NCBI RefSeq assembly: GCF_014202765.1
Contig: NZ_JACHHN010000011.1
Coordinates: forward strand, 1-64,000
From: Silvimonas terrae
GTDB taxonomy: Bacteria > Pseudomonadota > Gammaproteobacteria > Burkholderiales > Chitinibacteraceae
DNA length: 64,000 nucleotides
Reading direction: 5' to 3'
Below, in pieces: positions 26,701 through 49,900 of this stretch; the stretch's first letter is position 1, and every line of letters starts with the position of its first letter. The notes beneath the pieces are model-generated. The model saw only the letters and a program-made list of their open reading frames with translations. It had not been told where the DNA came from and made no database searches. The translations under genes and the position numbers were made by a program.

Positions 26701-27530
26701 TTAGCGCCTTGCGGCGCGGTGTTTTACATGTCGGGGGTTGCCCGACAGCAAGTGCCTTTCTTTTGGGTCGCCAAAAGAAAGTAACCAAAGAAAAGGTGAC
26801 CCCTGCGACAGCGCCCCTTCGGGGTTCCCTGCGCTTCTCGCAAGGCGCGGCTGGCTACGGGAACTCGGGCTACGCCCTCAAACACCCCTCCGCCGAAACC
26901 CCGCGCCTTGCTGCGATGCTCGGCACTGCCGGAGGGGAGGTAGGTCAAAAACAACGGCCACATCAAAAACCAAAAACCAAAAACCAAAGCCAAAAAAGCC
27001 AAAAGCCAAAAGCCATCCCAACCCCGCAAACCATCTGTCCGTAAGAATGGTTCACCTTGCCTACCACTTCGTCATTCCCGCGGAGGCGGGAATCCAGTCC
27101 GCAGCCCAACGGGCTGCCTGCGGTGGATGACCACGACCGTCTTGAATTGTCCCAAGCAGCATGGATGCATCGCAGCTGGATTCCGGCTCAAGGCCGGAAT
27201 GACGAGTCAGTGGGATGCGTGTTGAGGTAGCGGTTGCCGTTGTCCTGGTGTTTCGTAGTTGCAGTTGTTGTTTTTGACTTTCTTTCCCCCATTAAAGCCC
27301 AGCGCCGAGGGCGTGGAGGGAGACCTTGGGCTCCCGACCGACTGAGGGCAGCCCGGAGGGCCGCCACCCCGCTGCAACTGCCATTTGGTGCGCCAGTGTC
27401 TTTGTGGGGATACCCACCAAGGGGCAGGCTGGGGTCGCCTTTCTTTGGTTATTTACCCCCAAAGAAAGTGACATGCTCCGGCCACTGCGGGTATCCCACG
27501 CTTTAAAAAGACCCGCACCGAAGGCGCTAA
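26701..27530. repeat. Composite head-to-head intergenic repeat, copy 1
   Basis: An 830-bp gene-free element between convergent genes. The left end starts TTAGCGCCTTGCGGCGC and the right end finishes CGAAGGCGCTAA, its approximate inverse. A left arm (CTTTCTTTTGGGTCGCC AAAAG..., GTAACCAAAG) and a right arm in opposite orientation (27270-27530, similar in reverse complement to 32960-33110) flank a low-complexity CAAAAAC tract (about 26963-27014) and a 135-bp module (27070-27204). A second copy is at 49060-49822. Long ORFs across it are by-products of base composition. Confidence 0.8.
27070..27204. repeat. 135-bp MITE-like module, copy 1
   Basis: Bounded by CGTCATTCC and its exact inverse GGAATGACG. 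Inside are the hairpins CCCGCGGAGGCGGG, GCAGCCCAACGGGCTGC and CCGGCTCAAGGCCGG. The same module, of exactly the same length, is found at 36511-36645 and 49411-49545. Confidence 0.88.
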
Positions 27531-27726
27531 CACCCGCAACAAGATGAAGCTGGTCCGCACCCCGGATTCCCGCCTCCGGCTCCATCCGGGCTACAAAGTG
27601 GTTCTTGCCACCAAAGGCCGCCGCTGGTGGCCGGCTGGATTCCAGCCTCAGCGGGGGGCCGCCGAGGCGAATGACGAAGTACCAGGGCAAGCACCCCGAG
27701 CTCAGACGGTTTGCATCCAATCGCAC

Positions 27727-28083
27727 TTACCCCACTTTCAACACCCCACTCATATCCTCATGTCCACTCCCACAAAACACATCACACAAAAACACCACTT
27801 CCCCCGGCGGTAAAGCCGGCAGGGTCAGCCGGGCCGTCTGCCCTGGCACCAGATCAGTTCGCAATTTCAGGTCCGGCAAGGAAAACCCCATCACGACATC
27901 ACTCACTGTCACCTCCAGCACTACCGGCTGATTCGCGGGAATGGCGACGGTAGCGGGCGTATAGACAAAGCGTTTGGCGCTAATGCGCACCACTTTGGGC
28001 TCGGCGGCAGCGACCAGCGTGGTCAGCGCGCCCGCAGACAAAGCCGCCATGCTTCCACGCAAAAACTGGCGTCGTGTCGTCAT
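27727..28083 (-). CDS. Cupredoxin-domain protein with a CuA-like copper motif
   Basis: A 118-residue exported protein with a Tat-like signal (MTTRRQFLRG...). The cupredoxin fold ends in C100-DVF-C104-GSG-H108-ED-M111, the C-x3-C-x3-H-x2-M spacing of the CuA loop of cytochrome oxidase subunit II. The other His ligand of CuA normally sits in an HGF context about 35 residues earlier; here the sequence is VVMGFSLPD, with Met65 at that place. It starts 2 bases after the stop of the metallophosphoesterase gene, so they form one operon, divergent from the ECF sigma pair. Confidence 0.88.
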   Translation of the reverse strand: MTTRRQFLRGSMAALSAGALTTLVAAAEPKVVRISAKRFVYTPATVAIPANQPVVLEVTVSDVVMGFSLPDLKLRTDLVPGQTARLTLPALPPGEVVFLCDVFCGSGHEDMSGVLKVG

Positions 28084-28085
28084 GA

Positions 28086-28979
28086 TCAGGCCCCCTGTAC
28101 CGGCAGTTCATGCAATACCGGCATGACGGCGCTGGCGGGTTCGGTCACTTCCCGAAAACCCAACCCGTGATAGGGCGCTGCGGCATTCCATGGCACGGGC
28201 ATGCGTTGCGGTTGTGATCCCGGAGCGGGCAGGGCAAACATCAGGCCCTGGCCAGCGTGATGGGCAATGTGGCCGGTCAGATGATGATGTTCCTGGTGGA
28301 TATGGCCGTAGAACACGGTCACGTTGTCATAAGGCTGCAGGAGGGCCAGCACCTGATCGCCATCTGTCGTGGCCCAATCCCAGCGCGGGTAAAGATCAAA
28401 TAACGGGCGGTGGGTGAAGACAATGATGCGGGCATCATGCGGCTGTTTGGCCAGGTCCGCCGCCAGCCATTGCAGTTGGGCGTCGCCCACTTTGGCATGC
28501 GGGTCGCTCACATTATCCAGCACGATGAAATGCACGCCTTTGTGATCAAAGGTGTAGTGCGTGGCGCCAAAAAATGCCTGGAACACCGCACCGTTATCCA
28601 GCGAGGCATCGTGCTCGCCTGGCATGTAATGCACGACCGGGACGGTGATTTGTGCCGCCAGTTGTTTGAATTCCTGCATGCGCTGGCGGCGCATGGCCGG
28701 GTCTTCACTGATGTGGGTGAGGTCGCCGGTGAACACCACAAAATCCGGCGGTGGGTTGAGCGCGTTAACGGCGGCGATGGCTTTGGGCAGCGTGCCGGTG
28801 TTGTCCGGGTTGACGGCCGGGCCCTTGAACCCCCAGTGCGTGTCAGACAACTGCACAAAGTAAAAATCACTGTTGGCGTCCTGGCCCCCTTTGCCCATGC
28901 CGGTGCAGCCGGTGACCAGTACCACACTTCCCAATCCGGCCAGTTTAAGAAAACTGCGCCGGTTGATTGCGTTTTCCAT
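28086..28979 (-). CDS. Exported metallophosphoesterase (calcineurin-like)
   Basis: From the ATG at 28977-28979 (AAAGGTG upstream), 297 residues. The N-terminus NRRSFLKLAGLGSVVLVTGC combines a twin-arginine motif with a lipobox. Calcineurin-like metal motifs follow in order: VQLSDTHWG (D-x-H), VFTGDLTH (G-D), MPGEHD (the family's GNHD), IIVFTHRPLF (H) and FYGHIHQEHH (GHxH). It hydrolyses phosphoesters outside the cytoplasm, substrate unknown. Probably regulated together with the cupredoxin gene by the divergent ECF sigma factor. Confidence 0.9.
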   Translation of the reverse strand: MENAINRRSFLKLAGLGSVVLVTGCTGMGKGGQDANSDFYFVQLSDTHWGFKGPAVNPDNTGTLPKAIAAVNALNPPPDFVVFTGDLTHISEDPAMRRQRMQEFKQLAAQITVPVVHYMPGEHDASLDNGAVFQAFFGATHYTFDHKGVHFIVLDNVSDPHAKVGDAQLQWLAADLAKQPHDARIIVFTHRPLFDLYPRWDWATTDGDQVLALLQPYDNVTVFYGHIHQEHHHLTGHIAHHAGQGLMFALPAPGSQPQRMPVPWNAAAPYHGLGFREVTEPASAVMPVLHELPVQGA

Positions 28980-29046
28980 GTTTTTCACCTTTGCTATGTT
29001 GAACACGTGTGGGGCGCTTGCTGCCCTTGTGTGTACAAACCAGCGG

Positions 29047-29066
29047 TGCGGAAAAAATATTCCGCA
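29047..29066. promoter_or_regulatory. Inverted repeat in the sigma/metallophosphoesterase intergenic region
   Basis: TGCGGAA-AAAATA-TTCCGCA, perfect 7-bp arms, lies about midway between the divergent metallophosphoesterase (start 28979) and sigma factor (start 29107) genes. It may be an operator or part of a bidirectional promoter. No regulator can be assigned. Confidence 0.5.
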
Positions 29067-29106
29067 TCAGGTGAAATAAAACTGTCCGCCCGGCAGTTAA
29101 CACAGC

Positions 29107-29643
29107 ATGAACGCCCCCATGCCACCCGACAAAAAGACCCGCTTTGAGCAACTGGCTTTGCCTCATCTGAACCGTGCCTGGCAACTGGCGCGCTGGCTGG
29201 CACGCAATGATGTGCAGGCCCAGGAAGTGGTGCAGGAGGCCTGGTTACGCGCATGGCGTTATTTCGATGGTTTTTCCGGCAACGCCGAGGATGCCCGCGC
29301 GTGGTTGCTGGCCATTGTGCGCAACGCGTTCTATGACAGCGTGGCCGTAAAACCAGAGACCGAACCGCTGGACGAAGCCGGCCCCGATGCGGTGGACTGG
29401 CGCTTCAATCCGGAAATCCTGGCCGCCCGTGCCGACGCCCGGCGCGTGCTGGAGCAAGCTTTGCGGCAACTGCCAGTGGCGTATCGGGAGATGATCGTGC
29501 TGCGCGAACTGGCGGAGTGCACGTATGAAGAAATTGCCACGCTGACGGGTTTGCCGGCCGGCACGGTGATGTCGCGCCTCTCTCGCGCCCGCAGCCAGCT
29601 GGCCCAATTGCTGGGCGCGGCCCAACCAGGAACAACGCGATGA
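29107..29643 (+). CDS. ECF-type RNA polymerase sigma factor
   Basis: A 178-residue sigma-70 family protein with region 2 (HLNRAWQLARWLARNDVQAQEVVQEAWLRAWRYF) and region 4 (LRQLPVAYREMIVLRELAECTYEEIATLTGLPAGTVMSRLSRARSQL) only, as in ECF factors. The stop TGA overlaps the anti-sigma start as ATGA. The divergent metallophosphoesterase/cupredoxin operon is the natural first target, and self-activation is usual for the class. The ECF subgroup cannot be set with certainty from sequence alone. Confidence 0.93.
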   Translation: MNAPMPPDKKTRFEQLALPHLNRAWQLARWLARNDVQAQEVVQEAWLRAWRYFDGFSGNAEDARAWLLAIVRNAFYDSVAVKPETEPLDEAGPDAVDWRFNPEILAARADARRVLEQALRQLPVAYREMIVLRELAECTYEEIATLTGLPAGTVMSRLSRARSQLAQLLGAAQPGTTR

Positions 29644-30419
29644 ACCATGATGATATCCAGACGCGTTTGTCCGCGCTGATTGATGACGAACTTCCCGCCG
29701 CAGAGGCCGATACCCTGCGGGCGCATCTGAATGACTGCGCTGAATGCCGCGAGGCCTATACGGCCATGCTGGCATTGGGTACCTGGGTGCAGCGCGATGC
29801 CATGACCCCATTGCCGCCCGTGCTGGCGGCGCAACTCTCTGCCAGCCTGGGGCCAACTGCACCGGCCGCTCCGGCCCGGCCGGTACGCCAGAGCGCCCCG
29901 GTGCGCGGCTGGTTCTGGCCGTCTCTGACCGGCCTGGGCGGCGTGCTGGCCGGTGCTGCGCTGATGTTCGCCGTGCTCCCACTGTTGCAGCCTTCCTCTG
30001 ATCTGCTCAGCCAGGACCTGCTGGCCGGGCATATTCGGGCGCTGCAGGTGGATCATTTGTCTGACGTAATCAGTACCGACCAGCACACGGTCAAACCGTG
30101 GTTTGCCGGCAAACTGGATTTCTCGCCACCTGTGCATGACCTGGTGGCGGATGGCTTTCCGCTGGCCGGGGGCCGGCTGGATTACCTGCAACAACGGCCG
30201 GTGGCTGTGCTCAACTACCGTTACCGGTTGCATGTGATTGAGGTCTACGCCTGGCCGGCGGCGGGCAAACCGGTCGGTGAGGCGCTGCAAACGCGTCAGG
30301 GCTATCAGATTCTGGGCTGGCAGCAAGAAGGCATGAATATGTGGGCGGTGTCTGATCTGAACGGGGCCGATCTGCAGCGTTTTGCCGGTCTGCTGAAAAA
30401 AGCGGGAGGCGTTTCCTGA
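29640..30419 (+). CDS. Zinc-finger anti-sigma factor, membrane bound
   Basis: A 259-residue protein. Residues 1-40 hold the ZAS motif H29-x3-C33-x2-C36 (RAHLNDCAEC), which grips the cognate sigma factor. A single membrane helix lies near 98-115 (SLTGLGGVLAGAALMFAVLPLL), followed by a ~140-residue periplasmic domain (VKPWFAGKLDFSPPVHDL...LQQRPVAVLNYRYRLHVIEVY) of the kind found in redox- or metal-responsive anti-sigmas. Translationally coupled to the sigma gene. A bidirectional terminator follows. Confidence 0.9.
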   Translation: MNHDDIQTRLSALIDDELPAAEADTLRAHLNDCAECREAYTAMLALGTWVQRDAMTPLPPVLAAQLSASLGPTAPAAPARPVRQSAPVRGWFWPSLTGLGGVLAGAALMFAVLPLLQPSSDLLSQDLLAGHIRALQVDHLSDVISTDQHTVKPWFAGKLDFSPPVHDLVADGFPLAGGRLDYLQQRPVAVLNYRYRLHVIEVYAWPAAGKPVGEALQTRQGYQILGWQQEGMNMWAVSDLNGADLQRFAGLLKKAGGVS

Positions 30420-30434
30420 ACGGATAAGCGGATT

Positions 30435-30464
30435 AAAAAGCCCGGCATTTGCCGGGCTTTTTTT
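30435..30464. terminator. Bidirectional terminator, anti-sigma / aldo-keto reductase
   Basis: Stem AAAAAGCCCGGCA/TGCCGGGCTTTTT with a 2-base apex, serving both convergent genes. Confidence 0.93.
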
Positions 30465-30476
30465 GTCGCAGCGCGT

Positions 30477-31586
30477 TCACGCTTTTGCGACCGGCACGGC
30501 GGTCACCGGCGCATAGGCTGCGGGCTGACTGTTTACGGGTACGTTGCCGTGAATGCGGTGCTGGTGATTGTCCGCAAACATGTAATACGGGAAGGGGCGG
30601 GCAGGTGCGCTGATGGCGTCAAGCCGTGCCAGTTGTGCATCCGGAATGGCGAATTCCAGCGAGCGCATGGTCTGCTGCAGTTGTTCCGGTTTGGTCGCAC
30701 CCACAATGACGCTGCTCATACCCTTGCGGTGGTACAACCAGTTGAGCGCCACTTGCGCCATCGGCCGCTCGATGTCCTGGGCCACGCGTTCCAGTTCCGC
30801 CACGATCTCAAAATTACGGGCGGTGAGCTTGTCAAAGCCCGGTGCCGCCTGGCCACCGGCAGAGGTGGTCTGCAAACGGCCGTCGCCAAACTGGCCGCCC
30901 TGGCTGGGCTTGTACTTGCCGCTCAACAACCCCATGGCGAGCGGGCTCCAGGCCACCAGACCCATGCCGGTTTCTACGGCCAGATCAGAGAACTCCAGTT
31001 CGGCATTGCGTTCGATCATGGAGTACTCCAATTGCAGGGCGGCGACCGGTTCATAACCGCGCCATTGCGCCAGCGTTTGTGCTTTGGCGGCATACCAGGC
31101 CGGTGTGTCAGACAAACCCACATAACGGATTTTGCCGGCGCGCACGGCATCATCCATGGTGCGCATGACTTCTTCTGCCGGCGTGACCCGATCCCAGGTG
31201 TGCAGGTAATACAGATCAATGTAATCCGTGTTCAGGCGCTTGAGCGAACCCTCCAGCGCCCGCATCAGATTCTTGCGATGATTGCCACCGGCGTTGGGGT
31301 TACCCGGCTCGGCGTTGTAGCTGTATTTGGTCGCCAGCACGACGCGATCGCGCACCCCGCGTTCGGCAATGAATTCGCCAGTCCAGATCTCGCTGGTACC
31401 GGCGGTGTACAGATCTGCGGTATCAATGAAATTGCCGCCGTGCTCCAGGTAAACATCAAACAGGCTCTTGGCGACATCACGTTCCGTGCCCCAGCCCCAT
31501 TCAGTGCCAAACGTCATGGTGCCCAGAGAGAACGGGCTAACCCGCAAACCAGAACGACCCAGCAGATGGTAAGTGGCGTTACTCAT
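30477..31586 (-). CDS. Aldo/keto reductase
   Basis: From the ATG at 31584-31586 (GAGGAG upstream), 369 residues starting MSNATYHLLGRSGLRVSPFSLGTMTFG. AKR TIM-barrel signatures: FIDTADLYTAGTSE (catalytic D and Y), VVLATKYSY (K), YIDLYYLHTWD (H) and the NADPH-binding end GMSSVIVGATKPEQL. It probably reduces aldehydes or ketones with NADPH. It is divergent from the LysR gene at 31697 with 110 bp between, so LysR control is likely. The frame opens 54 codons upstream into the LysR start region, which I reject. Confidence 0.92.
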   Translation of the reverse strand: MSNATYHLLGRSGLRVSPFSLGTMTFGTEWGWGTERDVAKSLFDVYLEHGGNFIDTADLYTAGTSEIWTGEFIAERGVRDRVVLATKYSYNAEPGNPNAGGNHRKNLMRALEGSLKRLNTDYIDLYYLHTWDRVTPAEEVMRTMDDAVRAGKIRYVGLSDTPAWYAAKAQTLAQWRGYEPVAALQLEYSMIERNAELEFSDLAVETGMGLVAWSPLAMGLLSGKYKPSQGGQFGDGRLQTTSAGGQAAPGFDKLTARNFEIVAELERVAQDIERPMAQVALNWLYHRKGMSSVIVGATKPEQLQQTMRSLEFAIPDAQLARLDAISAPARPFPYYMFADNHQHRIHGNVPVNSQPAAYAPVTAVPVAKA

Positions 31587-31696
31587 GATGAATCTCCTCA
31601 GTAATCCCGGCCAGACAACCGGGGTGGTCGCTTGTTGACGGAACCCATTCTGGTCTGCTTTATTGTGAAGAAAAATACTTTCTGGATTGATGGACC

Positions 31697-32626
31697 ATGA
31701 AGCAAAACTTAAAAATAGATCCGGCCCAACTCCCCGCCTTGTTAGCATTTGAACGGGTGGCCCGCCACGGCAATTTCAGCAAGGCGGCCGATGAAATGGG
31801 CGTGTCGCCCTCGGCGCTCTCGCAGACCATCCGCAACCTGGAAGCGCGCACCGGCATTCATTTGCTTAACCGCACCACGCGTCGGGTCAGCGTCACGGAA
31901 GCCGGCCTGCGTCTTTTATCCGGCGTGACGCCCGGGCTGGCGCAGATTGAAGCCGCGCTGATTGATCTGGAAGACCTGCGTGAACAACCGGCCGGCACCT
32001 TGCGCATTAACCTGCCGCGTCTGGCGTACCGCATCATCATCGCCCCGTACCTGGCGGTGTTTATGCAGGCCTACCCGGATCTGCACGTGGAGTTCCGCCT
32101 GGATGAGGGCCTGAGCGATATCGTCGGTGAGGGTTCTGATGCCGGTATCCGCTTTGGAGAAAGCGTGGCACGGGATATGGTCGCGGTACGGATCGGCGGC
32201 AAGCGGCGCATCGCCGTCGCGGCCACGCCAGATTATCTGGATCGCCACGGCCGCCCACAGGTGCCGGAAGACCTGTTTAACCACAACTGCCTGCGTTACC
32301 GCTTTATCACCAGTGGCCGACTCTACGCCTGGGAGTTCACGCGGGATGGACGTGAGTTTGAAATCGGTCTGGAAGGGCGGCTGGTGTACAACGACATTTA
32401 CGATATGGTGGATGCCGCGCGGCTGGGTCTGGGGATTGTTCACATCACGGAAGACGTGATTGCCGGGGACCTGGCCAGCGGGCGGCTGGAGCGGGTGCTG
32501 GCTGATTGGTGCGCGCCGTTTGACGGGTTCTTTTTGTACTACCCCAACCGGGCGTGGATGCCGCGCAAACTGCGGGTGTTTATTGACTGGTTTCAGCGGG
32601 TGAACCAGATGCCACAGCATCCGTAG
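31697..32626 (+). CDS. LysR family transcriptional regulator
   Basis: A 309-residue LysR protein: helix-turn-helix at residues 10-65 (LLAFERVARHGNFSKAADEMGVSPSALSQTIRNLEARTGIHLLNRT) and effector domain from ~92 (GTLRINLPRLAYRIIIAPYL). Divergent from the aldo/keto reductase. Its TAG stop codon (32624-32626) is formed by the first bases of an intergenic repeat (GTAGCCCGGATGGAG), so that repeat may have fixed or altered the C-terminus. Confidence 0.93.
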   Translation: MKQNLKIDPAQLPALLAFERVARHGNFSKAADEMGVSPSALSQTIRNLEARTGIHLLNRTTRRVSVTEAGLRLLSGVTPGLAQIEAALIDLEDLREQPAGTLRINLPRLAYRIIIAPYLAVFMQAYPDLHVEFRLDEGLSDIVGEGSDAGIRFGESVARDMVAVRIGGKRRIAVAATPDYLDRHGRPQVPEDLFNHNCLRYRFITSGRLYAWEFTRDGREFEIGLEGRLVYNDIYDMVDAARLGLGIVHITEDVIAGDLASGRLERVLADWCAPFDGFFLYYPNRAWMPRKLRVFIDWFQRVNQMPQHP

Positions 32627-33300
32627 CCCGGATGGAGCAGGAGGCGGGAATCCGGTTGTAGGGTGGATTCGGAGCGGCAGCGACAATCCGCCATTGCTGT
32701 CGTTGAAACCTGAACCATTGTCAGCGCCTGAGGGCGCGGGCTTGAAAGACATTTGATACCCGGGGTGCCGGGCCCACGTTACTTTCTTTGCTTCGCCAAA
32801 GAAAAGCGTCCGTAGCCCGGATGGAGCCGGAGGCGGGAATCCAGTTGTAGGGTGGATTCGGAGCGGCAGCGACAATCCACCATTGCTGTCGTTGAAACCT
32901 GAACTATTGTTAGCGCCTGACGGCGCAAGTTTTAAAATCGTTTGATACCGGCGGTGGCCGGAGCACGTCACTTTCTTTGCTTCGCCAAAGAAAGTAACCA
33001 AAGAAAGGCGACCCAGCCTGGCGGCCCTCCGGGCTTCCCTCAGTCGGTCGGGAGCCTAAGGTCTCCCTCCACTCCTTCGGCGCTTGGCTTTAACGGGGGA
33101 GAAAGTCAAAAGCAACGGCAAAAGCAACGGCAAAAGCAACGGCAACAGCAACAGCAACAGCACTGCTGGACTGGCACACAGCTCGTATTCCCCTCGGCGG
33201 GCCCCCGCGAAGGCGGGAATCCAGCTGCAATATTCGCAAGAATACGGGCGTCACCCCTGTCACTCCGCCTCGTCATTCCGGTGAACTCTGCAATCCCCGC
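32623..33300. repeat. Intergenic repeat cluster with a ~189-bp tandem duplication
   Basis: Two direct copies start GTAGCCCGGATGGAG at 32623 and 32812. Each continues with GTAGGGTGGATTCGGAGCG, GACAATCC, then GCGCCTGA-GGCGC and CTTTCTTTGCTTCGCCAAAG. The second copy goes on into the long composite-repeat arm (33000-33107) and a simple tract at 33108-33161: three units of AAAAGCAACGGC then three of AACAGC. Degenerate pieces of the 135-bp module follow (33190-33290). No gene is seen here; it lies between convergent LysR and EamA genes. Confidence 0.8.
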
Positions 33301-33303
33301 CGC

Positions 33304-34146
33304 CTAACCCCGCCGCCGGTTCAAAATCACCAGCACAATCCCGCCCAGAATAGCGATTGACGCCAGAATCAGCCGCAGACCCAGTGGCTCATTCAGAAAC
33401 AACACCGCCCCGATCGCGGCAATGGCGGGGACGGACAACTGCACAATGGCCGCAGTGGTGGCCGCCAGCGCTGGCAAGACGCGGTACCACAAAGCGTAAC
33501 CCAGACCGGATGTGACCACACCAGAGGCCAGCGCATAGAGCACACCTGCCATATCAAACCGCGTGTGCTGCATAACGATAATCCAGCAGCCCAACGCAAC
33601 AGGTGTTGCCCGCAAGAAATTACCGGCGGTGACCGCGGTTGGGTCACCCGCACCGCGGCCGCGCAGGGAATACACACCCCAGGCCACTCCTGCGGCAATC
33701 ATGAGCAGGGAAGAAAACAGTGGCGGGGCGGACAGGCCGGGCAACATCAAGCCGATGACGCCGGCCGCAGCCATCACGACACCCAACCATTGCCAGGGCG
33801 TGAGCCGTTCGCCACGCCACATGCCATAACCAATCATGCTGATCTGCACGGCGCCAAACAGAATCAACGCACCCGCGGCGGCTGGCAAATTGACGTAGGC
33901 CCAGGAGAACCCGGCCGCGTAGATAAACAAGGCCAGCGCAGAGGTCAGATTGCCTTTGAAGCGTGGACGTTGCGTTCGCAAACACACCAGCACCGCCAGC
34001 ACTGCCGCCCCTGATGCGATGCGGATCAAGGTGAAACTGGCCGGGTCAATTGCGGTGGTTTTCAATGCCAGCCGGCACAGGATGGAATTGCCGGCAAAGG
34101 CCACCATGGCAAACAGCGTGAGGGCAAACACGCGGGCAGGGGACAT
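33304..34146 (-). CDS. EamA/DMT family transporter
   Basis: From the ATG at 34144-34146, 280 residues with about ten membrane helices in two EamA halves: MSPARVFALTLFAMVAFAGNSILCRLALK at the start, and APPLFSSLLMIAAGVAWGVYSLRGRGAG opening the second half. It probably exports a small metabolite or amino acid; no substrate can be given. The frame extends 47 codons upstream without family similarity. It is divergent from the TetR gene at 34342, which may regulate it. Confidence 0.88.
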   Translation of the reverse strand: MSPARVFALTLFAMVAFAGNSILCRLALKTTAIDPASFTLIRIASGAAVLAVLVCLRTQRPRFKGNLTSALALFIYAAGFSWAYVNLPAAAGALILFGAVQISMIGYGMWRGERLTPWQWLGVVMAAAGVIGLMLPGLSAPPLFSSLLMIAAGVAWGVYSLRGRGAGDPTAVTAGNFLRATPVALGCWIIVMQHTRFDMAGVLYALASGVVTSGLGYALWYRVLPALAATTAAIVQLSVPAIAAIGAVLFLNEPLGLRLILASIAILGGIVLVILNRRRG

Positions 34147-34314
34147 AAAAAGAGGTACTCGCAGTATCGTGCTGTTGGGTTTCGCACCGTGTTGTGACTG
34201 CATTCTGGCAGCGATTCCCGCGCTATCAAAGCGGCGTTGCAGCGCTGTCGCAAACGTGACGTAACCGGCCAGATGACCGTCTGGCATCTCGCCAACTTAT
34301 GCTGTTTGTATAAA

Positions 34315-34326
34315 ACGACCGATCGT
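34315..34326 (+). promoter_or_regulatory. Candidate TetR operator
   Basis: ACGACCGATCGT lies 15 bases before the TetR ATG. One base away from it is the perfect palindrome ACGACCGGTCGT at 35051-35062 in the start of the next gene. The ACGACCGxTCGT form is typical of TetR-family sites; binding by this TetR is inferred from position. Confidence 0.5.
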
Positions 34327-34341
34327 GCTAATTTTCAGCGC

Positions 34342-34959
34342 ATGGGAAAAGGCGAACAGAAAAGACAAGACATCATTGAGCACGCGCTCATGCTGGCCGG
34401 GCAGGTGGGGCTGGAAGGCCTGAGCCTGGGTGGCCTTGCCACCAGCATGGAGATATCCAAAAGCGGGCTGTTTGCGCATTTCAAATCCAAAGAGGCCCTG
34501 CAACTGGCCGTGCTGGAACTGGCGCGCGAGCGTTTTGTGGCGGAAGTCATGGCGCCCGCAGTGGCGCTCCCGCGCGGCATGACGCGGCTGACCGGATTGT
34601 TTGACCGTTATCTGGCCTGGATACGCGGCCAGGCCAGTCAGGGGTCCTGCATTTTTATGGCGCTGGCGCATGAATACGATGACCGGCCGGGCGATATCCG
34701 CGACGTGCTGGTCAATTGCTGGCGCGAGTTCGGCGGCTCGGTGGCGCGCGTGGCCGCCACCGCCATTACCGAGGGCGAGTTCCGGCCAGATTGCGACCCA
34801 GGCCAGTTCGCCTTTGAGTTTGTCGGCATTGTCATGGTGTTTCAGCACGCCCACAAATTGATGGGCGAGGCGCAAGCCGAAGCGCGCGCCCGGCAAGCAT
34901 TCAAACGATTGCTGCGCTCTTACCGCCAGCCCGAAGCCCTGGCTGTGCGCCCGTCATAA
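34342..34959 (+). CDS. TetR family transcriptional regulator
   Basis: From the ATG at 34342, 205 residues: MGKGEQKRQDIIEHALMLAGQVGLEGLSLGGLATSMEISKSGLFAHFKSKEALQ is the TetR helix-turn-helix domain. The C-terminal domain includes GSCIFMALAHEYDDRPGDIRD, seen in regulators placed beside hydrolases and transporters. It is followed 49 bases later by the alpha/beta hydrolase gene and is divergent from an EamA exporter. Confidence 0.92.
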   Translation: MGKGEQKRQDIIEHALMLAGQVGLEGLSLGGLATSMEISKSGLFAHFKSKEALQLAVLELARERFVAEVMAPAVALPRGMTRLTGLFDRYLAWIRGQASQGSCIFMALAHEYDDRPGDIRDVLVNCWREFGGSVARVAATAITEGEFRPDCDPGQFAFEFVGIVMVFQHAHKLMGEAQAEARARQAFKRLLRSYRQPEALAVRPS

Positions 34960-35008
34960 CGCATTACAAACACATCAACACAGCAATTCCACACTCCGGA
35001 GCCTGATC

Positions 35009-35917: not shown

Positions 35918-35985
35918 GAGCGGCGCCGGTGGAACCGGGCCAAAGTGGTCTAACATTCACGGCATTCAAACGGAGAATGTGAACC

Positions 35986-36438: not shown

Positions 36439-36510
36439 GGGGCAAGTCAAAGACAACCCCAACCCTGCAAACCGTCTGCCGGCAAAAATGGTTTCTCTAG
36501 CCCATCACTT

Positions 36511-36645
36511 CGTCATTCCTGCGCAAGCAGGAATCCAGTCTGCAGCCCAACGGGCTGCTTGCGGTGGACGACCGCGACTGCTTTGAATTGCCCTGAGCAG
36601 CATGCATGCGTCGTAGCTGGATTCCGGCTCAAGGCCGGAATGACG
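36511..36645. repeat. 135-bp MITE-like module, copy 2
   Basis: Same 135-bp length and ends (CGTCATTCC ... GGAATGACG) as copies at 27070-27204 and 49411-49545. A shared leader of about 55 bp (AACCCTGCAAACCGTCTGCC at 36462-36481) precedes all copies. Here it stands alone, without the long flanking arms, between the convergent DUF2214 and DUF1501 genes. Confidence 0.88.
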
Positions 36646-36772
36646 ATGCAAAGAAATGCAAGAAAACCATGCTTGCGCGCAGACGGCTTAGGAGGCACCG
36701 TAGCCCCCGCCACCCTCTCAACCGCGCGCCGCAAGGCCCCCACAAACAGGCTTGCCGCAGCCATCAGCCAAA

Positions 36773-41223: not shown

Positions 41224-41296
41224 TGACCATGCCCGGATATTCTTGTTTGCAGCGTAATCCGGGCTTCGCTGTGCTTGCGCCGTCTGAGAACCCCGT

Positions 41297-44200
41297 ATGA
41301 ATCCGTCACGTTTGTTTATTTTGCGCCCGGTGGCCACCAGTCTGTTGATGGTCGCCATCTTGCTGGCCGGCCTTGTGGCCATGCGCTTTTTGCCGATTTC
41401 CGCTTTGCCGGAAGTCGATTACCCCACCATTCAGGTGGTCACGCTCTATCCGGGGGCCAGCCCGGATGTCACCACGTCATCCATTACCGCGCCGCTGGAG
41501 CGTCAGTTCGGGCAGATGCCGGGACTATCGCAAATGTCTTCGGTGAACTCGGGCGGCGCGTCGGTCATTACGCTGCAGTTTGACCTCTCGCTGGGGCTGG
41601 ATGTGGCCGAGCAAGAAGTCCAGGCCGCCATCAATGCCGCCAGTAACTTGCTGCCCACCGATTTGCCCATGCCGCCGATCTACAGCAAGGTGAACCCGGC
41701 TGATACGCCGATCATGACGCTGGCGATTACCAGCGGCACCATGACCTTGCCCAAGGTGGAAGACCTGGTCGACACGCGCCTGGCGCAGAAGATTTCGCAA
41801 GTGCCGGGCGTGGGTCTGGTGAGTTTGTCCGGCGGGCAACGCCCGGCTGTGCGCATTCAGGCCAACCCCAAGCAACTGGCGTCTTACGGTCTGAATATTG
41901 AAGATGTACGCACCGCCATCGGCAATGCCAATACCAATCAGGCCAAGGGCAGTTTTGATGGCCCGATGCGCGCGTCGACCATTGATGCCAACGATCAGCT
42001 CAAGAGCGCAGCCGAGTACAACGGCCTGGTGCTGGCCTACAAAAACGGCGCGGCGATCCGCTTGTCTGATGTGGCGACCATTGTTGATGGCGCCGAAAAC
42101 GCGCGCCTTGCCGCCTGGGCCAATGACACACCGGCGATCTTGCTGAACATTCAGCGCCAGCCGGGTGCCAACGTGATCCAGGTGGTCGACAACATCAAGA
42201 AGCTGTTGCCGTCGCTCCAGGCCACGCTGCCGGGCGCCGTGGATGTAAAGGTGCTGACTGACCGCACCACCACCATTCGCGCCTCGGTCACTGACACGGT
42301 GTATGAACTCTTGCTGGCGATTGTGCTGGTGGTGCTGGTGATCTTTGTGTTCTTGCGCAATGTCTCGGCCACCATCATCCCCAGCATTGCCGTGCCGCTT
42401 TCGCTGGTGGGCACCTTTGGCGTGATGTACCTGTGCGGGTTCTCCATCAACAACCTGACCTTGATGGCGCTGACCATTGCCACGGGTTTTGTGGTCGATG
42501 ACGCCATCGTCATGATCGAGAACATTGCCCGTTACATTGAAGAGGGCGAAGAGCCCATGACTGCCGCGCTCAAGGGCGCAGAGCAGATTGGCTTTACCAT
42601 TATTTCGCTGACGTTCTCGCTGATTGCGGTGCTGATTCCGCTGTTGTTCATGGGCGATGTGGTGGGCCGCTTGTTCCGCGAGTTCGCCATCACGCTGGCG
42701 GTGTCCATCCTGATCTCGGCCGTGGTGTCGCTGACATTGACGCCGATGATGTGCGCGCGTTTGCTCAAGCACGTGCCGGAAGAAAAACAGGGGCGGTTCT
42801 ATCACAGCGTCGGCGGGTTCTTTGACCGGGTGATTGCGCAGTATGGCAAGTGGCTGACCTGGGTGCTGGATCGGCAGCGCCTCACGCTGGCGGTCGCCGT
42901 CGGTACGATTGTGCTGACCGGCCTGTTGTATGTGTTTGTGCCGAAGGGTTTCTTCCCGGTGCAGGATACCGGCGTGATTCAGGGGATTTCGGATGCCTCG
43001 CAATCGGTGTCGTTTGAAGCCATGTCGGCGCGCCAGCAACAACTGGCAGATGTCATCCTCAAAGACCAGGATGTCGAGTCGCTGACCTCCTTCATCGGCG
43101 TGGATGGCACCAATGCCACGCTCAATAGCGGCCGCATGCTGATCAACCTCAAGCCGCATGACCAGCGTTCCTCTTCGGCCAGCGAGATCATCCGTCGCCT
43201 GCAGCCGGAAGTGGCGAAAGTGGAGGGCATCTCGCTCTTCATGCAGCCGGTACAAGACCTGACTATTGAAGACCGCGTGGCACGTACGCAGTACCAATTT
43301 ACGCTGCAGACCGCTGACATCAACGAGCTATCCACGTGGGTGCCCAAACTGGTGGATAAACTCTCCGCCTTGCCACAACTGGCCGATGTTGCCAGCGACA
43401 TGCAAGACAAAGGTTTGCAGGCCTATGTGGATATTGATCGCGATGCCGCTGGCCGCCTGGGCATCACGCCGGCAGCTATCGACAACGCCTTGTACAGTGC
43501 CTATGGCCAGCGCATGGTCTCGACCATTTACACGCAGGCCAACCAGTATCGCGTGATCCTGGAAGCCTCGCCAGAGCAGACCATTGGCCCGCAGTCGCTG
43601 GGTGACTTGCATGTGGCTGGCACCAACAACGTGCAAGTGCCGTTGTCGGCCGTGGCGCGCGTGGTGGAGCAAAACACGCCGCTGGTGATCAACCATCTGG
43701 CGCAGTTCCCGTCGGCCACGGTGTCGTTCAACCTGGCGTCTGGCGCATCGCTGGGCGAGGCCGTACAGATGATCGACCAGGCCGAGAAAGAAATCGGCAT
43801 GCCGATCTCCATCGCCACCAGCTATCAGGGGGCGGCGCTGGCCTTCCGCGCGGCACTCTCTAACGAGCTGTGGCTGATTCTGGCCGCCATTGTCACCATG
43901 TATATCGTGCTGGGCGTGCTCTACGAGAGCTACATCCACCCGATCACCATTCTCTCCACGCTGCCGTCAGCCGGGATTGGCGCGCTGCTGGCGCTGCTGC
44001 TGGCGCGCACCGACCTCTCGGTCATTGCCATCATCGGTATCGTGTTGTTGATTGGTATCGTCAAGAAAAACGCCATCATGATGATCGACTTTGCCTTGCA
44101 GGCCGAGCGTGACGAAGGCAAAGCCCCGCGGGAAGCCATTTTCCAGGCGTGTCTGCTGCGTTTCCGCCCGATCTTGATGACCACCATGGCCGCTTTGCTG

Positions 44201-44416
44201 GGCGCGTTGCCGCTGATGCTGGGTACCGGTGTCGGGGCCGAGTTGCGCCATCCGCTGGGTGTGACCATGGTCGGTGGTTTGCTGGTCAGCCAGTTGCTCA
44301 CGCTGTTTACCACGCCGGTGATTTACCTGTGGTTTGATCGTGTCAGTGGCCGGTTCCGCGACTGGCAAGCCCGCCGCAATGGCCAGACGCCAACGCCTTC
44401 GACGGACGTGCGCTGA
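41297..44416 (+). CDS. mdtB: RND efflux permease, MdtB type
   Basis: A 1039-residue HAE1-family inner-membrane pump with 12 predicted helices and two large periplasmic loops. Typical opening [20 protein letters not shown], porter motif [23 protein letters not shown] and proton-relay TM4 [19 protein letters not shown]. MdtB and MdtC function as a heteromultimer driven by proton exchange. The stop overlaps the mdtC ATG. Substrates may include bile salts, novobiocin or metals as in relatives, but not deducible here. Confidence 0.94.
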
Positions 44417-47400
44417 TGAGTTTTTCTGCCACTTTCATCACCCGGCCGGTGGCCACCACGCTGCTGACCATCGGCATTGCGCTGGCGGGCATGGTCTCGT
44501 TCATGCTCTTGCCCGTGTCGCCGCTGCCGCAGGTGGATTACCCGACCATCTCGGTCTCCGCCAGCTTGCCCGGCGCGTCGCCGGACACCATGGCAGCGAC
44601 GGTCGCCACCCCGCTGGAACGTGCGCTGGGCCGCATTGCCGGCGTGACAGAAATGACCTCGTCCAGTTCGCTGGGCTCCACGCGCATTACGCTGCAATTT
44701 GATCTGGATCGCGACATCAATGGTGCCGCGCGTGACGTGCAAGCCGCCATCAACGCCGCGCGCAGCTTGCTGCCCACCGGCATGCCCAGCAATCCGACGT
44801 ACCGCAAGGTGAACCCGGCGGATGCGCCGATCATGATTCTGGCGCTGACCTCGGCTACCATGAGTCAGGGCCAGATGTATGACGCGGCCTCGACCATCCT
44901 GGCGCAAAAGCTGTCGCAGATTGATGGCGTCGGTACGGTCAACGTCGGCGGTAGTTCTTTGCCGGCGGTGCGGGTAGAACTCAACCCCACCCAGTTGAAT
45001 CAGTACGGCGTATCGCTGGAAACCGTGCGCACCACGCTGGCCGCCGCTAACGCCAACCGGCCCAAGGGCTTTGCCGAAGACGGTGATCGGCACTGGCAGA
45101 TTTACGCCAGCGACCAGGCCAAGACCGCCAAAGAGTATTTGCCGCTGATCGTCAGCTACAAAAACGGCAACGCGGTGCGGCTGTCGGATGTGGCAGAGGT
45201 CAAAGACTCGGTGCAGGACTTGCGCAATGCCGGTTCGGCCAATGGCAAGCCATCAGTCCTCTTGATTGTGCAGCGCTCGCCGGGCGCCAACATCATCGAG
45301 ACCGTCAACCGCATTTACGCTGAACTGCCCAAGCTGGAAGCGCAGATTCCCGCTGCTATTCATGTCGATGTGGCGATGGATCGCTCGCCCACCATCCGTG
45401 CCTCGCTCAATGAAGTGGAGCGCACGCTGGTGGTGTCGATTGTGCTGGTGATCTTTGTGGTGTTCCTGTTCCTGCGCAACGGCCGCGCCACACTGATCCC
45501 GGCGGTAGCCGTACCGGTGTCACTGATTGCCACTTTTGCGGCGATGTATCTGTGCGGCTTCAGCCTGAACAATCTCTCGCTGATGGCGCTGACTATTGCC
45601 ACCGGTTTTGTGGTGGATGATGCCATTGTGGTGCTGGAGAACGTCTCCCGGCACATTGAAGAGGGGATGAAACCCTTCCAGGCCGCCATGGCCGGGGCCA
45701 GCGAAGTGGGTTTTACCGTCATCAGCATGAGTATTTCGCTGGTGGCGGTGTTTATCCCCATTTTGATGATGGGAGGGATTATCGGCCGGCTGTTCCGCGA
45801 ATTTGCGGTGACCTTGTCGGTGGCTATTCTGGTGTCGCTGATTATCTCCCTGACCACCACGCCGATGATGTGCTCCCGCCTGTTGCGGCCAGAACGCAAG
45901 ACCCACGGCCGGCTGTATCGCTGGAGCGAGGCGTTTTTCAATGGCATGCAAAAGGGCTATAGCCGTTCACTGACCTGGGTGCTGCGCCACGGCCCGCTGG
46001 TCATGCTGATCTTGCTGATCACGGTCTGCCTGAATGTCTACCTGTACGTGGTCATCCCCAAGGGCTTTTTCCCGCAGCAAGACACTGGCCGCATTACCGG
46101 CAATGTGCAGGCGGACCAGAGTATTTCTTTCCAGGCCATGCGCCAGAAAATGGTGGATTTCGCCACCATTGTGAAGAGCGATCCGGCGGTGGATGTGGTC
46201 ACGGCGTATACCGGTGGCGGTCAGCGTAATGGCGGCTTCATGTTTGTCTCGCTCAAGCCCTTGAGCGAACGCAAGATTTCCTCTGACGCCGTCATTGCCC
46301 GCTTGCGCGGCAAACTGGCCAACGAGCCGGGCGCGCAACTGTTTTTGCAATCGGTGCAGGATATCCGCGTGGGTGGGCGTAGTTCCAACGCGCAGTACCA
46401 GTACACCTTGCAGGCAGATGATCTGGCCGTGCTGCGCGAGTGGCAGCCGAAAATCCAGGCCGCGCTGGCCAATGTGGACATCCTGAAAGATGTGAATACG
46501 GACTCCCAGGATAAAGGGCTGCAAACCACGCTGACGCTGAATCGCGACGCCATGGCGCGGCTGGGGCTGACCGTCACCCAGGTCGACTCCGTGCTGAACG
46601 ATGCCTTCGGCCAGCGCCAGGTCTCCACCATTTACCAGCCGCTGAACCAGTATCACGTGGTGATGGAAGTGGCACCGCAGTTCTGGCAAAGCCCGGAAGC
46701 ACTGAAGAATATCTATATCATCACCGCTGCCGGGGCGCAGGTGCCGCTATCCACCGTGGCCAGCTACGGCCCCACGTTTACACCGCTGGCGGTGAACCAT
46801 CAGGGCGAGTTTGTCGCGGCGACCATCTCGTTCAACCTGGACCCGGGTACGTCGTTGTCTGAAGCCCAGGCAGCGATTGAAGACACGATGAACCGGCTGA
46901 GTGTGCCGACATCCATTCACGGCAGCTTTGCCGGCAGCGCAGCGGCGTTCCAGCAATCTCAGAACTCGCAGCCGCTGTTGATCCTGGCAGCGATTGTGGC
47001 GGTGTATATCGTGCTGGGCATTTTGTACGAGAGCTACGTGCACCCGATCACGATTCTCTCCACGCTGCCATCCGCCGGGGTCGGCGCGCTGCTGGCGCTG
47101 ATGTTGTTCAAGACCGAGTTCACCATCGTGGCCTTGATTGGCGTGTTGCTGCTGATTGGCATCGTCAAGAAGAACGCCATCATGATGATCGACTTTGCCC
47201 TGGAGGCAGAGCGCAAACAGGGTATGACCTCGCGTGAGGCCATCTATCACGCCTGCCTGTTGCGGTTCCGCCCGATCATGATGACGACCATGGCGGCCAT
47301 CCTCGGGGCCATCCCTTTGGCGCTCGGACAGGGCGATGGCGCTGAACTGCGTCAGCCGTTAGGGATTTCAATCGTTGGTGGTCTTGTGGTCAGCCAGGTG

Positions 47401-47529
47401 CTGACGCTGTACACCACCCCTGTCATGTATCTGTACCTGGACCGTTTCCGTTTCTGGTGTCTGCGCCGTTTGGGCCGGACCGAAGCACAAACGACGTTTG
47501 ACGCGCAAAGTGGCGCAGGAGCCCGCTAA
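44416..47529 (+). CDS. mdtC: RND efflux permease, MdtC type
   Basis: A 1037-residue paralogue of the preceding pump ([91 protein letters not shown]). The [19 protein letters not shown] stretch is the hallmark of MdtC/MuxC-type partners. Translationally coupled to mdtB and abutting the outer-membrane gene, so all four parts of the pump are made from one transcript. Confidence 0.94.
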
Positions 47530-48999
47530 ATGAAACGCAATCTGACACTTACCCTGATGACCTTTGCCGTTGTGGCGGCGCTGACCGGCTGCGCCGTCGG
47601 CCCAGACTACAAAGGCGCGCCGCAGATGGACGCCGGTACGGCGTTCAAGGAAGCCCAGGGCTTCAAACAGGCCAACCCGCAAGACCTCTCGCCGCGTGGC
47701 AAGTGGTGGGAGGCCTACAACGACAGCACGCTGAATGGTTTGATCGATCAGGTACAAGTCACCAACCAGACCGTCAAACAGTTTGAAGCGCAATATCGCC
47801 AGGCCCAGGCCGCCGGTGATGTGGCCCGCGCTGCTTACTGGCCCACGCTGGGGCTGGATCTGTCTGCCTCGCGCAGCCAGAGCAACACCAGTACCGTGAG
47901 CGGCACCGGTGGCTCAACCACCACCGTGCAGCGCAGCGCCGTAAAGAACAACTACGGGGCAACACTGAACGCCAGTTGGGAGCCGGATATCTGGGGCAAG
48001 GTGCGTCGCCAGGTCGAAGCTCAGGACGCCAACACGCAAGCGGTTGCGGCGAACCTGGCCGGGGCCTTGCTCTCTGCCCAGGCCACCCTGGCACAAGATT
48101 ACTTCCAGCTGCGCGTGATTGATGCCCAGAAAGTGCTGTTGAACCAGACGGTCGACGCCTACCAGAAGTCACTGACGCTGACGCAAAACCAGTACAAGGC
48201 CGGCATCGTGACCCGCGCTGACGTCGCCCAGGCCCAAACGCAACTGTTGACGGCGCAGGCATCGCAGACCGATCTGGGCATGTCGCGCGCACAGCTTGAA
48301 CACGCCATCGCCATCCTGATTGGCAAGGCCCCGGCCAATTTCAGCCTGCCCGAGCAACCCGCGCTGATGGCCACGCTGCCGGATGTTCCGGCGGGGCTCC
48401 CGTCTGATCTGCTACAACGCCGCCCGGACATTGCCTCGGCCGAACGTGCCGTCGCGCAAGCCAACGCCAACGTCGGCGTCGCCACCGCCGCCATGTACCC
48501 GGCGCTGACGCTGTCTGGCTCCGGCGGTTACCAGGGCAATGAATGGGGCAATCTGTTCGACCTGCCCAACCGCATCTGGTCGCTGGGTGCCGGTCTGACC
48601 CAACCGCTGTTTGAAGGTGGCCTGTTGAAAGCGGGGCAGCAAGAAGCGCAGGCCCAATACGACGCCACCGTCGCGGAATATCGCCAGACCGTACTGGGTG
48701 GTTTGCAAGAGGTCGAAGACAACCTGGCCGCGCTGCGTATCTTGCAAGACGAAGCCCAGACCCAGGACCTGGCTGTGAAGGCTGCCAAGGATTCGGCTGA
48801 TCTGGCGTTCAACCAGTACAAGGCGGGAACGGCGACTTATGTCAATGTGGCGACGACCCAGGCCTCTTTGCTGAGCGCCCAGCGCACTGCGCTGGATGTG
48901 CAGCAGCGGCGCTTTACCGCCAATGTGCTGTTGATCAAGGCGCTGGGTGGTGGGTGGGAGGCGTCGCAGATGACGCAGACGGCTTCTGCTGCCAAGTGA
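47530..48999 (+). CDS. Outer-membrane efflux lipoprotein (NodT/CmeC type)
   Basis: A 489-residue outer-membrane factor with lipobox VVAALTGC-AVGPDYKGAP. It has the family segment WWEAYNDSTLNGLIDQV, mid-motif GLPSDLLQRRPDIASAERAVAQANANVGVATAAMYPALTLSG, and a second repeat ending in LQEVEDNLAALRIL. It provides the exit duct for the MdtABC-type pump. Separate from the MacAB-linked outer-membrane factor at 25213, which it resembles only at family level. A strong terminator follows. Confidence 0.92.
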   Translation: MKRNLTLTLMTFAVVAALTGCAVGPDYKGAPQMDAGTAFKEAQGFKQANPQDLSPRGKWWEAYNDSTLNGLIDQVQVTNQTVKQFEAQYRQAQAAGDVARAAYWPTLGLDLSASRSQSNTSTVSGTGGSTTTVQRSAVKNNYGATLNASWEPDIWGKVRRQVEAQDANTQAVAANLAGALLSAQATLAQDYFQLRVIDAQKVLLNQTVDAYQKSLTLTQNQYKAGIVTRADVAQAQTQLLTAQASQTDLGMSRAQLEHAIAILIGKAPANFSLPEQPALMATLPDVPAGLPSDLLQRRPDIASAERAVAQANANVGVATAAMYPALTLSGSGGYQGNEWGNLFDLPNRIWSLGAGLTQPLFEGGLLKAGQQEAQAQYDATVAEYRQTVLGGLQEVEDNLAALRILQDEAQTQDLAVKAAKDSADLAFNQYKAGTATYVNVATTQASLLSAQRTALDVQQRRFTANVLLIKALGGGWEASQMTQTASAAK

Positions 49000-49019
49000 T
49001 GGGTTGTGGTGGTTGAAAC

Positions 49020-49050
49020 AAAAAAGCCCCGGATGATCTGGGGCTTTTTT
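49020..49050 (+). terminator. Rho-independent terminator of the RND operon
   Basis: Stem AAAAAAGCCCC/GGGGCTTTTTT with a 9-base loop. Confidence 0.93.
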
Positions 49051-49297
49051 GTTTGGGGTTTAGCGCCTTGCGGCGTGGTGGGTTTGATACCGGCGGTGGC
49101 CGGAGCACCTTACTTTCTTTGCGTCGCCAAAGAAAGTAAGCAAAGAAAGGCGCCCCCTGCGACAGCGCCCACTTCGTGGGTTCCCTGCGCTTCTCGCGTG
49201 GCCCGGCAGGCTCGGGAACTCGCTGCGCTCAGACACCCCTCGCCGAAACCCCGGGCCCCGCTGCGATGCTCGGCACTGCCGGAGGGGAGGGAGGTCA

Positions 49298-49357
49298 AAA
49301 GCCAAAGCCAAAGCCAAAGCCAAAGCCAAAGCCAAAGCCAAAGCCAAAGCGAAAGCC
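49298..49357. repeat. Hexamer microsatellite (AAAGCC)10
   Basis: Ten tandem AAAGCC units, the ninth being AAAGCG, at the site where the other composite copies carry different simple repeats. Confidence 0.92.
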
Positions 49358-49410
49358 CCCAAGCCCGCAAACTGTCTGCCCGCAAGAATGATTGGCCCGC
49401 CTCACCACTT

Positions 49411-49545
49411 CGTCATTCCCGCGAAGGCGGGAATCCAGTCCGCAGCCCAACGGGCTGCTTGCGGTGGCCGACTGCTTCACTTCGGATTTACTCTGAACAG
49501 CGTGCATGCATTGCAGCTGGATTCCGGCTCAAGGCCGGAATGACG
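49411..49545. repeat. 135-bp MITE-like module, copy 3
   Basis: Ends CGTCATTCC and GGAATGACG, with internal hairpins GCAGCCCAACGGGCTGC and CCGGCTCAAGGCCGG. Same length as the other two complete copies. Confidence 0.88.
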
Positions 49546-49900
49546 AGCGAGTGGGATGCCGGTTGAATTGGCAGTTGTGTTGGTGTTGGGTTTCGGGATT
49601 GTAGTTGTTTTTGACGTTTCCCCCTGTCGAGGACTTTTCCGATTGAGGGAGGGAGACCCCAGGCTCCCGACTGATTGAGGGAACCGCGGAGCGGAAAAGC
49701 CCGGGGGTCGCCTTTCTTTGCCTACTTTCTTTGGGGCCGCCGAGGTGGTGAAGCAAAGAAAGTAGGGTGCTCCCGCCACCGCGGGTATTAAATGCTTTTA
49801 AACACTGCGCCGAAGGCGCTTACAAAAGCCAGCGTGTTACATATAGCAGTCAAGGCAATAAACGAATAAGCCTGCCGCGCAGAGCAGCGAGTGCCAGGAC

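What the first reader, a model, noticed from the sequence alone, without database searches (positions are those of the whole stretch)
26701..49822. Composite head-to-head intergenic elements with inverted ends
The 830-bp element at 26701-27530 and the 763-bp element at 49060-49822 have the same plan: TTAGCGCC end, arm, simple-sequence tract, 135-bp module, inverted arm, GGCGCT(T/A)A end. They encode nothing plausible and carry no transposase. They could be a non-autonomous mobile element, a BIME-like structural repeat, or a DNA-organisation site, and I know of no description of this exact architecture.
Basis: seen in the sequence. Interest (0 to 1): 0.7.

Follow-up and report, generated by a model that had tools for sequence, protein, structure and literature searches.

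The report
Replication-oriented head-to-head intergenic repeats
The two elements are copies of a large family of non-coding, hairpin-rich repeats lying between genes in a Silvimonas genome, and in this genome one of their two halves almost always points in the direction of chromosome copying, which suggests that they were inserted during replication.

Summary
Both elements belong to a genome-wide family in Silvimonas (Betaproteobacteria, Neisseriales). Each is an inverted pair of two different half-elements: an L-half of about 240 bp (TTAGCGCC hairpin, arm, L core) and an R-half of about 190 bp (same end and arm, other core). The 135-bp module is a head-to-head pair of known CGTC-1/dRS3 palindromes. 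Halves also occur alone; composites keep their order. Three things were not foreseen. (1) L-bearing elements point along the leading strand in 59 of 62 sampled copies, whatever the gene direction, while R-only elements are random (25:22). (2) The L-half has a covarying secondary structure. (3) Of 19 L sites compared with S. amylolytica, 8 are empty there, all leading here; both lagging copies are shared. Best reading: a non-autonomous structured repeat whose recent lineage inserted strand-specifically at replication. No enzyme was identified; no Y1/RAYT-type transposase was found in the copy-rich genomes. Architecture selection is less likely: few exact KOPS, negative octamer test. Polarity is weak in S. 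amylolytica (11:6) and absent in one genome of another genus (7:7). New variant of a known kind (REP/BIME/NIME-like mosaics).

The parts
26701..26813 (+). L-half of element 1: end hairpin (TTAGCGCC...GGCGC) and arm
   Evidence: helices 1-3
26814..26942 (+). L core of element 1, with the covarying long helix; ends GCCGGAGGGGAGG
26943..27069 (+). simple-sequence tract and short conserved stretch (CGCAAACC..AAGAATGGTT) of element 1
27070..27204 (.). 135-bp module: head-to-head pair of CGTC-tagged palindromes (the first is ATTCCC N8 GGGAAT, dRS3 type)
   Evidence: pattern from PMC3898611; CGTC-1 family from PMC3733652
27262..27427 (-). R core of element 1 (end-first reading is on the minus strand)
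27428..27530 (-). inverted arm and end hairpin of the R-half of element 1
26635..26673 (+). outer GTAG-tagged palindrome left of element 1 (REP-like)
   Evidence: (module Y)
27561..27594 (-). outer GTAG-tagged palindrome right of element 1 (REP-like)
   Evidence: (module v)
49060..49157 (+). L-half of element 2: end hairpin and arm
49158..49297 (+). L core of element 2 (here with an exact GGGGAGGG near its end)
49298..49357 (+). AAAGCC simple-sequence tract, 10 units
49411..49545 (.). 135-bp module: head-to-head CGTC-tagged palindromes
   Evidence: Neisseria match to query 346-383
49590..49703 (-). R core of element 2
49704..49822 (-). inverted arm and end of the R-half of element 2
32752..33116 (+). 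solo R-half in the same window

Best explanation
A family of non-autonomous, non-coding, structure-forming repeats of the REP/BIME/NIME kind. Two half-elements (L and R) with the same end hairpin and arm occur alone or joined tail to tail, mostly round a CGTC-palindrome pair, in gaps between genes. Shown: the copies, the order in composites, the presence/absence polymorphism, the covarying fold, and the leading-strand orientation of the L lineage in this genome. Inferred: the recently active L lineage inserts in one orientation relative to fork movement, as elements that use single-stranded DNA at the fork do, helped by an enzyme or replication process not identified here; R-halves spread without this bias. 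No host function needs to be assumed.
For: L-bearing elements in 1.28 Mb of sampled own genome: 58 leading to 4 lagging of 62; one of the 4 lies left of dnaA in a stretch of negative skew, giving 59:3, p about 2e-14. R-only 25:22. Strand assignment is checked by GGGNAGGG, 149:9 outside elements, the strongest gapped octamer. Genes are nearly balanced (575:523), and leading L elements between co-directional genes run with them in 12 cases, against in 16. In relative G002 the sign changes across dif. G002 30:4, S. amylolytica 11:6; R-only there 4:5 together. Of 19 own L sites compared with S. amylolytica, 8 face a gap under 140 bp there, all leading; the 2 lagging ones are shared. The two reader elements add two further sites without element there. 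Covariation: 96.9% paired against 86.7 (sd 0.4) in shuffles, 218 double-changed cells against 67.
Against: No Y1 transposase (PF01797) in G000, G001 or G002, the copy-rich genomes. No target duplication seen by eye and right boundaries are mostly unclear (17 sites printed in 55); gain and loss cannot be told apart site by site. R-halves share ends and arm but are unpolarised, which a simple end-driven mechanism does not predict. A variant with CTCCTTA(A/T)GGGG is lagging in 5 of 5 copies seen. In G041, another genus, L copies are even: 7 leading, 7 lagging, 2 unclear by my reading. Outer modules near R-only elements lean to leading too (v 23:9, Y 28:17, i 12:0), which I cannot explain. In helices defined by Watson-Crick pairing, mismatches on the L+ strand are A-C 35 to G-U 3, hinting that the folded strand is the complement, not the strand exposed on the lagging template.
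Confidence: 0.48

Rival explanations
1. Orientation is imposed afterwards by selection: L is, or carries, a polar chromosome-organisation signal (FtsK-guiding or other), so copies in the wrong orientation are lost.
For: Strong polarity in G000 and G002. L copies with GGGGAGG after the core, one base from the KOPS form, are leading in 56 of 56, those without it 29:12 (Fisher 1e-5 pooled; 0.017, 0.002 and 0.27 in G000, G001 and G002).
Against: Exact GGGNAGGG on the leading strand is present in 2 of 58 leading L elements. R-only elements with GGGGAGG are 9 leading to 10 lagging. Outside elements GGGGAGG followed by A, C or T is 26:12. The octamer polarity score of L+ is slightly negative (-0.023) and its GC skew is -0.040. 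No exact end motif lies in C2:247,114-670,137, which holds dif at 606 kb. Old lagging copies persist in two or three species.
Confidence: 0.2
2. Structured RNA or terminator-like elements: transcribed hairpins that end or stabilise transcripts, kept for that role, with spread as a side effect.
For: Strong covariation; A-C over G-U asymmetry, as expected for an RNA of the complementary strand; 16 of 35 leading L-only and 10 of 23 leading composites lie between convergent genes and only 2 of these 58 between divergent genes.
Against: Does not explain replication-strand polarity independent of gene direction. No Rfam match. Quasi-palindromes can also be kept paired at DNA level (own knowledge). 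Element 2 sits behind an existing terminator-like hairpin (49016-49054).
Confidence: 0.14
3. Passive expansion by template switching and recombination among hairpin-rich intergenic mosaics, with the bias coming from fork direction and no transposase at all.
For: Nested modules, arrays, varying tails and reuse of sites by different elements; no Y1 enzyme.
Against: Over a hundred end motifs across the genome, a similarity to the empty site that stops exactly at 49059 and a kept L-R order are not typical of local template switching.
Confidence: 0.18

Closest known systems
NIME arrays and dRS3 of Neisseria (CGTC-1 REPs)
   Same: Same order Neisseriales; the 135-bp module is a pair of dRS3-type, CGTC-tagged palindromes head to head; mosaic intergenic arrays (PMC3898611 passages; PMC3733652 abstract and passages).
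   Different: The L and R halves with arm and end hairpin are not described in the passages that I saw; the term leading strand has 0 occurrences in PMC3733652.
GTAG REPs, BIMEs and RAYT/TIRYT systems
   Same: Outer GTAG palindromes; inverted pairing of units; ssDNA use would give strand bias (PMC6006769 passages; PMC3733652 section 16).
   Different: L and R are several times longer, lack a GTAG tag at their end, and no Y1 gene was found in the three copy-rich genomes.
IS200/IS605 and their non-autonomous derivatives
   Same: Hairpin ends, no target duplication seen, replication-strand orientation.
   Different: No transposase found in the copy-rich genomes; R shares the ends but shows no bias.
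KOPS/AIMS (PMC5993296 passages)
   Same: Leading-strand polarity.
   Different: Hundreds of bases long, not 8; no sign of terminus enrichment; octamer test negative.
Arm-core inverted pair in Variovorax paradoxus CP063167 (no feature annotated there)
   Same: About 700 bp by reading, two inverted copies of arm plus L-like core between genes.
   Different: Both halves look L-like; a different repeat lies between them.

Membership tests
dRS3 / CGTC-1 REP (for the 135-bp module only) | ATTCCC(N8)GGGAAT with CGTC tag, often in head-to-head dimers | tested here: met
   Exact at 27074-27093 with CGTC at 27070-27073; the second unit, with the inverted tag GACG at 27201-27204, has ATTCCGG..CCGGAAT and so departs from the exact pattern. 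Neisseria match.
GTAG REP / BIME (for L and R) | GTAG or GTGG tag beside a 20-40 bp palindrome | tested here: not met
   L and R begin TGTTAGCGCC (consensus). GTAG palindromes flank many of them as separate modules.
GTAG REP / BIME (for L and R) | RAYT (Y1 HUH transposase) in the genome | tested here: not met
   PF01797: 0 matches in G000, G001, G002; 2 in G003, 1 in G041, 1 in G042; found in 5 of 14 control genomes.
MITE | terminal inverted repeats | tested here: met
   for composites; solo halves have only one such end
MITE | target site duplication | tested here: inconclusive
   no flanking duplication visible by eye, but right boundaries are often unclear
MITE | ends shared with a full-length insertion sequence | not tested
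   no search for other transposase families with these ends was made; nine open frames of the two elements match no Pfam or NCBIfam family over cut-off
KOPS/AIMS | leading-strand bias | tested here: met
   59:3 in G000
KOPS/AIMS | abundance rising toward the terminus | tested here: inconclusive
   No exact end motif in the C2 stretch from 247 kb to 670 kb that holds dif; contigs were not ordered along the ori-ter axis
Known Rfam RNA family | covariance-model match | tested here: not met
   whole window, gathering threshold: 0
Phage part | similar DNA in phage records | tested here: not met
   element 2: no match in 50,697 phage records; 5 partial matches in the plasmid collection

The most novel reading that the evidence does not exclude
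An uncharacterised class of large, structured, non-autonomous elements that enters the chromosome in one orientation relative to the replication fork without a HUH-Y1 transposase, its two halves behaving differently (L strand-bound, R free), with the L-R plan seen in two genera of Chitinibacteraceae and kin in Burkholderiales.
Probability: 0.3. Interest if true: 0.82.

Novelty: new variant of a known kind. Interest (0 to 1): 0.58.

Why it matters
To my knowledge (recalled, not from a call) few sequence elements longer than an octamer follow replication direction this strictly. Here the same genome holds its own control (R-only elements, and palindrome modules standing alone, unpolarised), so the question whether polarity comes from insertion at the fork or from later selection can be tested directly. 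It also gives Silvimonas an unannotated repeat family with over a hundred end motifs that may shape intergenic regions and genome rearrangement.

Tried and rejected
Near-KOPS motif as cause: the GGGGAGG tail goes with leading orientation in L, but not in R-only elements (9:10 with it, 15:12 without), and outside the elements it is only weakly polarised; rejected as sole cause. Folding asymmetry of the two strands as cause: leading and lagging L copies do not differ (p 0.86, 85 and 12 copies). Octamer architecture score: slightly negative. Gene direction: no effect. Coding capacity: no family above cut-off in nine open frames. Rfam: none. Generality: even in G041, weak in S. amylolytica. RNAalifold G-U counts as strand evidence were set aside, because the predicted fold itself favours wobble; only helices defined by Watson-Crick pairing were used. 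A resemblance to integron attC sites was considered from memory only and not tested. Literature searches without a direct description of the halves; the sequence-string search listed one Neisseria paper holding a dRS3-type string and three papers on mammals holding the GTAG string, none opened.

Rows dropped or chosen: L hits of 60 bp or less and R hits of 70 bp or less were ignored (so C5:196615 counts as R only). Alignment A1 used 67 of 97 L-halves. 87 R-halves met the filters. Own stretches were chosen round hits, plus 4 others from contigs C1 and C2, so they are not a random sample; relatives' stretches were chosen round hits. Strand signs of G001 and G002 stretches were set by hand from skew and GGGNAGGG; several are weak (for example L192, L197, L201, L206, L224). 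Lists of the genome search score at most 40 candidates a genome and were cut. One search stopped on an error after printing the part that I used; one search timed out and gave nothing.
Full report
WHAT IS THERE. The sequence at 26701-27530 and 49060-49822 is as described. The genome is a Silvimonas: the protein of the gene beside element 2 is 94% identical to that of S. amylolytica, and relative G001 carries a contig of exactly the length of that record, so I take G001 as S. amylolytica.

ANATOMY. Consensus L and R halves share TGTTAGCGCC, a GCGCC/GGCGC hairpin, a CCGG hairpin and the arm, and end in a GTCAAAAGCAAC-type simple-sequence tail. The cores differ. The 135-bp module is a head-to-head pair of CGTC-tagged palindromes; the first fits the dRS3 pattern ATTCCC(N8)GGGAAT printed in PMC3898611 (passages) and CGTC-1 as described in PMC3733652 (abstract, passages and section 16). 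GTAG-tagged palindromes lie outside many copies. Nine open frames in the two elements match no Pfam or NCBIfam family over cut-off, and Rfam has no match in the window. None of the 111 elements lies inside a predicted gene (the gene finder was my own simple one).

POLARITY. In each of the 12 contigs sampled, the majority orientation of L-halves has the sign of the GC skew. By contig sign the count is 58 leading to 4 lagging. One of the four, at C5:6-194, lies left of dnaA (C5:10593) in a stretch with negative skew, so the count becomes 59:3; it is the only sampled copy on that side of dnaA on this contig. R-only elements are 25:22; L against R differs with Fisher p about 3e-7. The strand assignment is supported by GGGNAGGG, 149:9 outside elements. 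Gene direction is nearly balanced (575:523), and among leading L elements between co-directional genes 12 run with and 16 against them. Other repeat modules standing alone are unpolarised (GTAG type v 37:39, type Y 14:15, CGTC palindromes 9:14), while modules of the composite lineage found without L lean to leading (for example T 4:1 alone and 5:1 near R), and so do outer modules near R-only elements (v 23:9, Y 28:17, i 12:0), which I cannot explain (all). In relatives, G002 gives 30:4 and S. amylolytica 11:6; R-only elements there are 1:1 and 3:4. On contig C1 of G002 the sampled L-halves left of dif (918,986) are on the plus strand, with one exception at 429,179, and the two at 1.43 Mb are on the minus strand. 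In G041, another genus, L copies over 100 bp are 7 leading, 7 lagging and 2 unclear by my reading.

SUBFAMILIES. Copies with GGGGAGG after the core are leading in 56 of 56; those without are 29:12 (97 copies of three genomes). A variant with CTCCTTA(A/T)GGGG is lagging in 5 of 5 copies. Since R-only elements with GGGGAGG show no bias (9:10), I read the motif as a mark of the lineage, not as the cause.

STRUCTURE. In an alignment of 67 L-halves RNAalifold finds 52 pairs, 14 with double changes. For five helices chosen mostly by Watson-Crick pairing, 96.9% of cells pair (shuffles 86.7, sd 0.4), with 218 double-changed cells (shuffles 67), and slid controls fall to 38-50%. The helices were chosen on the same alignment, which favours them. 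The long core helix keeps 11 pairs through several different complementary sequences. The measure of further pair types did not exceed shuffles (485 of 500 as high). Mismatches are A-C 35, G-U 3 on the L+ strand; cells are not independent.

SITES. In S. amylolytica element 2 is absent: its DNA aligns to the window up to 49059 and again from 49923. For element 1 the gap between matching flanks is 103 bp there against 1,116 bp here, 283 bp in G003, and 1,653 bp in G002, where an L-L-R array stands. Over the ortholog pairs that could be made with the fetched stretches, 19 own L sites were compared with S. amylolytica: 8 gaps under 140 bp (all own copies leading), 6 leading in both, 2 lagging in both, 1 leading here but lagging there, 1 with R only there, 1 other without L there. 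Against G002, 18 own L sites: 13 leading in both, 1 gap under 140 bp, 1 lagging in both, 1 lagging here with R only there, 1 leading here but lagging there, 1 leading here and mixed there. Where only the relative has L, it is leading at 2 sites of S. amylolytica and at 5 of 6 sites of G002. Thus the lagging own copies compared are shared, older ones with one relative or both, and the copies absent from S. amylolytica are leading. The numbers are small.

MECHANISM. Insertion-time bias fits best: the copies missing from the relative are all leading, old lagging copies have not been purged, and the L sequence itself carries no leading-strand composition. Elements that use the lagging-strand template (IS608, ISDra2) are the known precedent (PMC6006769, passages), but no Y1 transposase was found in the three copy-rich genomes, so that step is inference without an enzyme. 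Selection for chromosome architecture remains possible.

RANGE. A query of the L-half of element 2 matches all 43 family genomes searched, the own one included (11 genera), often by the arm alone. Over most of its length it is matched at 73-78% in G041 and G042 of one other genus, and at 70-72% in G040, G019, G014 and G015 (a cut list). One composite with the same L-R plan was read in full in G042 (L240). A Variovorax paradoxus replicon carries an inverted pair of arm plus L-like core. Element 2 has no match in phage records.

NOVELTY. The palindrome modules are known. I found no description of the L and R halves or of such polarity; most of the listed papers were not opened, and subscription papers are mostly not in that library.

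Noticed in passing
window 1-130: 18.6 perfect copies of the heptamer CTCACAC at the end of contig C11; the 9-mer CCTCACACC also recurs in own stretches at C1:861 kb and C3:588 kb, in these three stretches only on the leading strand.
   Followed up: partly
window 32616-32993: A 189-bp unit twice in tandem (88% alike) holding both GTAG palindromes and an end-like hairpin, overlapping the solo R-half at 32752-33116.
   Followed up: no
window 36506-36646: A CGTC palindrome pair (M module) standing alone between genes.
   Followed up: no
G000:C1:498523 and its orthologs: The same intergenic site holds a leading L here but a lagging short R-L composite in both G001 and G002, so sites are reused or elements replaced.
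   Followed up: partly
G000:C9:39518: A bare end hairpin with outer modules but no arm or core where G002 has a full array; could be a remnant or a target.
   Followed up: no
NZ_CP119140.1: A 2.17-Mb record in the plasmid collection labelled as a N. gonorrhoeae plasmid has the size of a chromosome.
   Followed up: no
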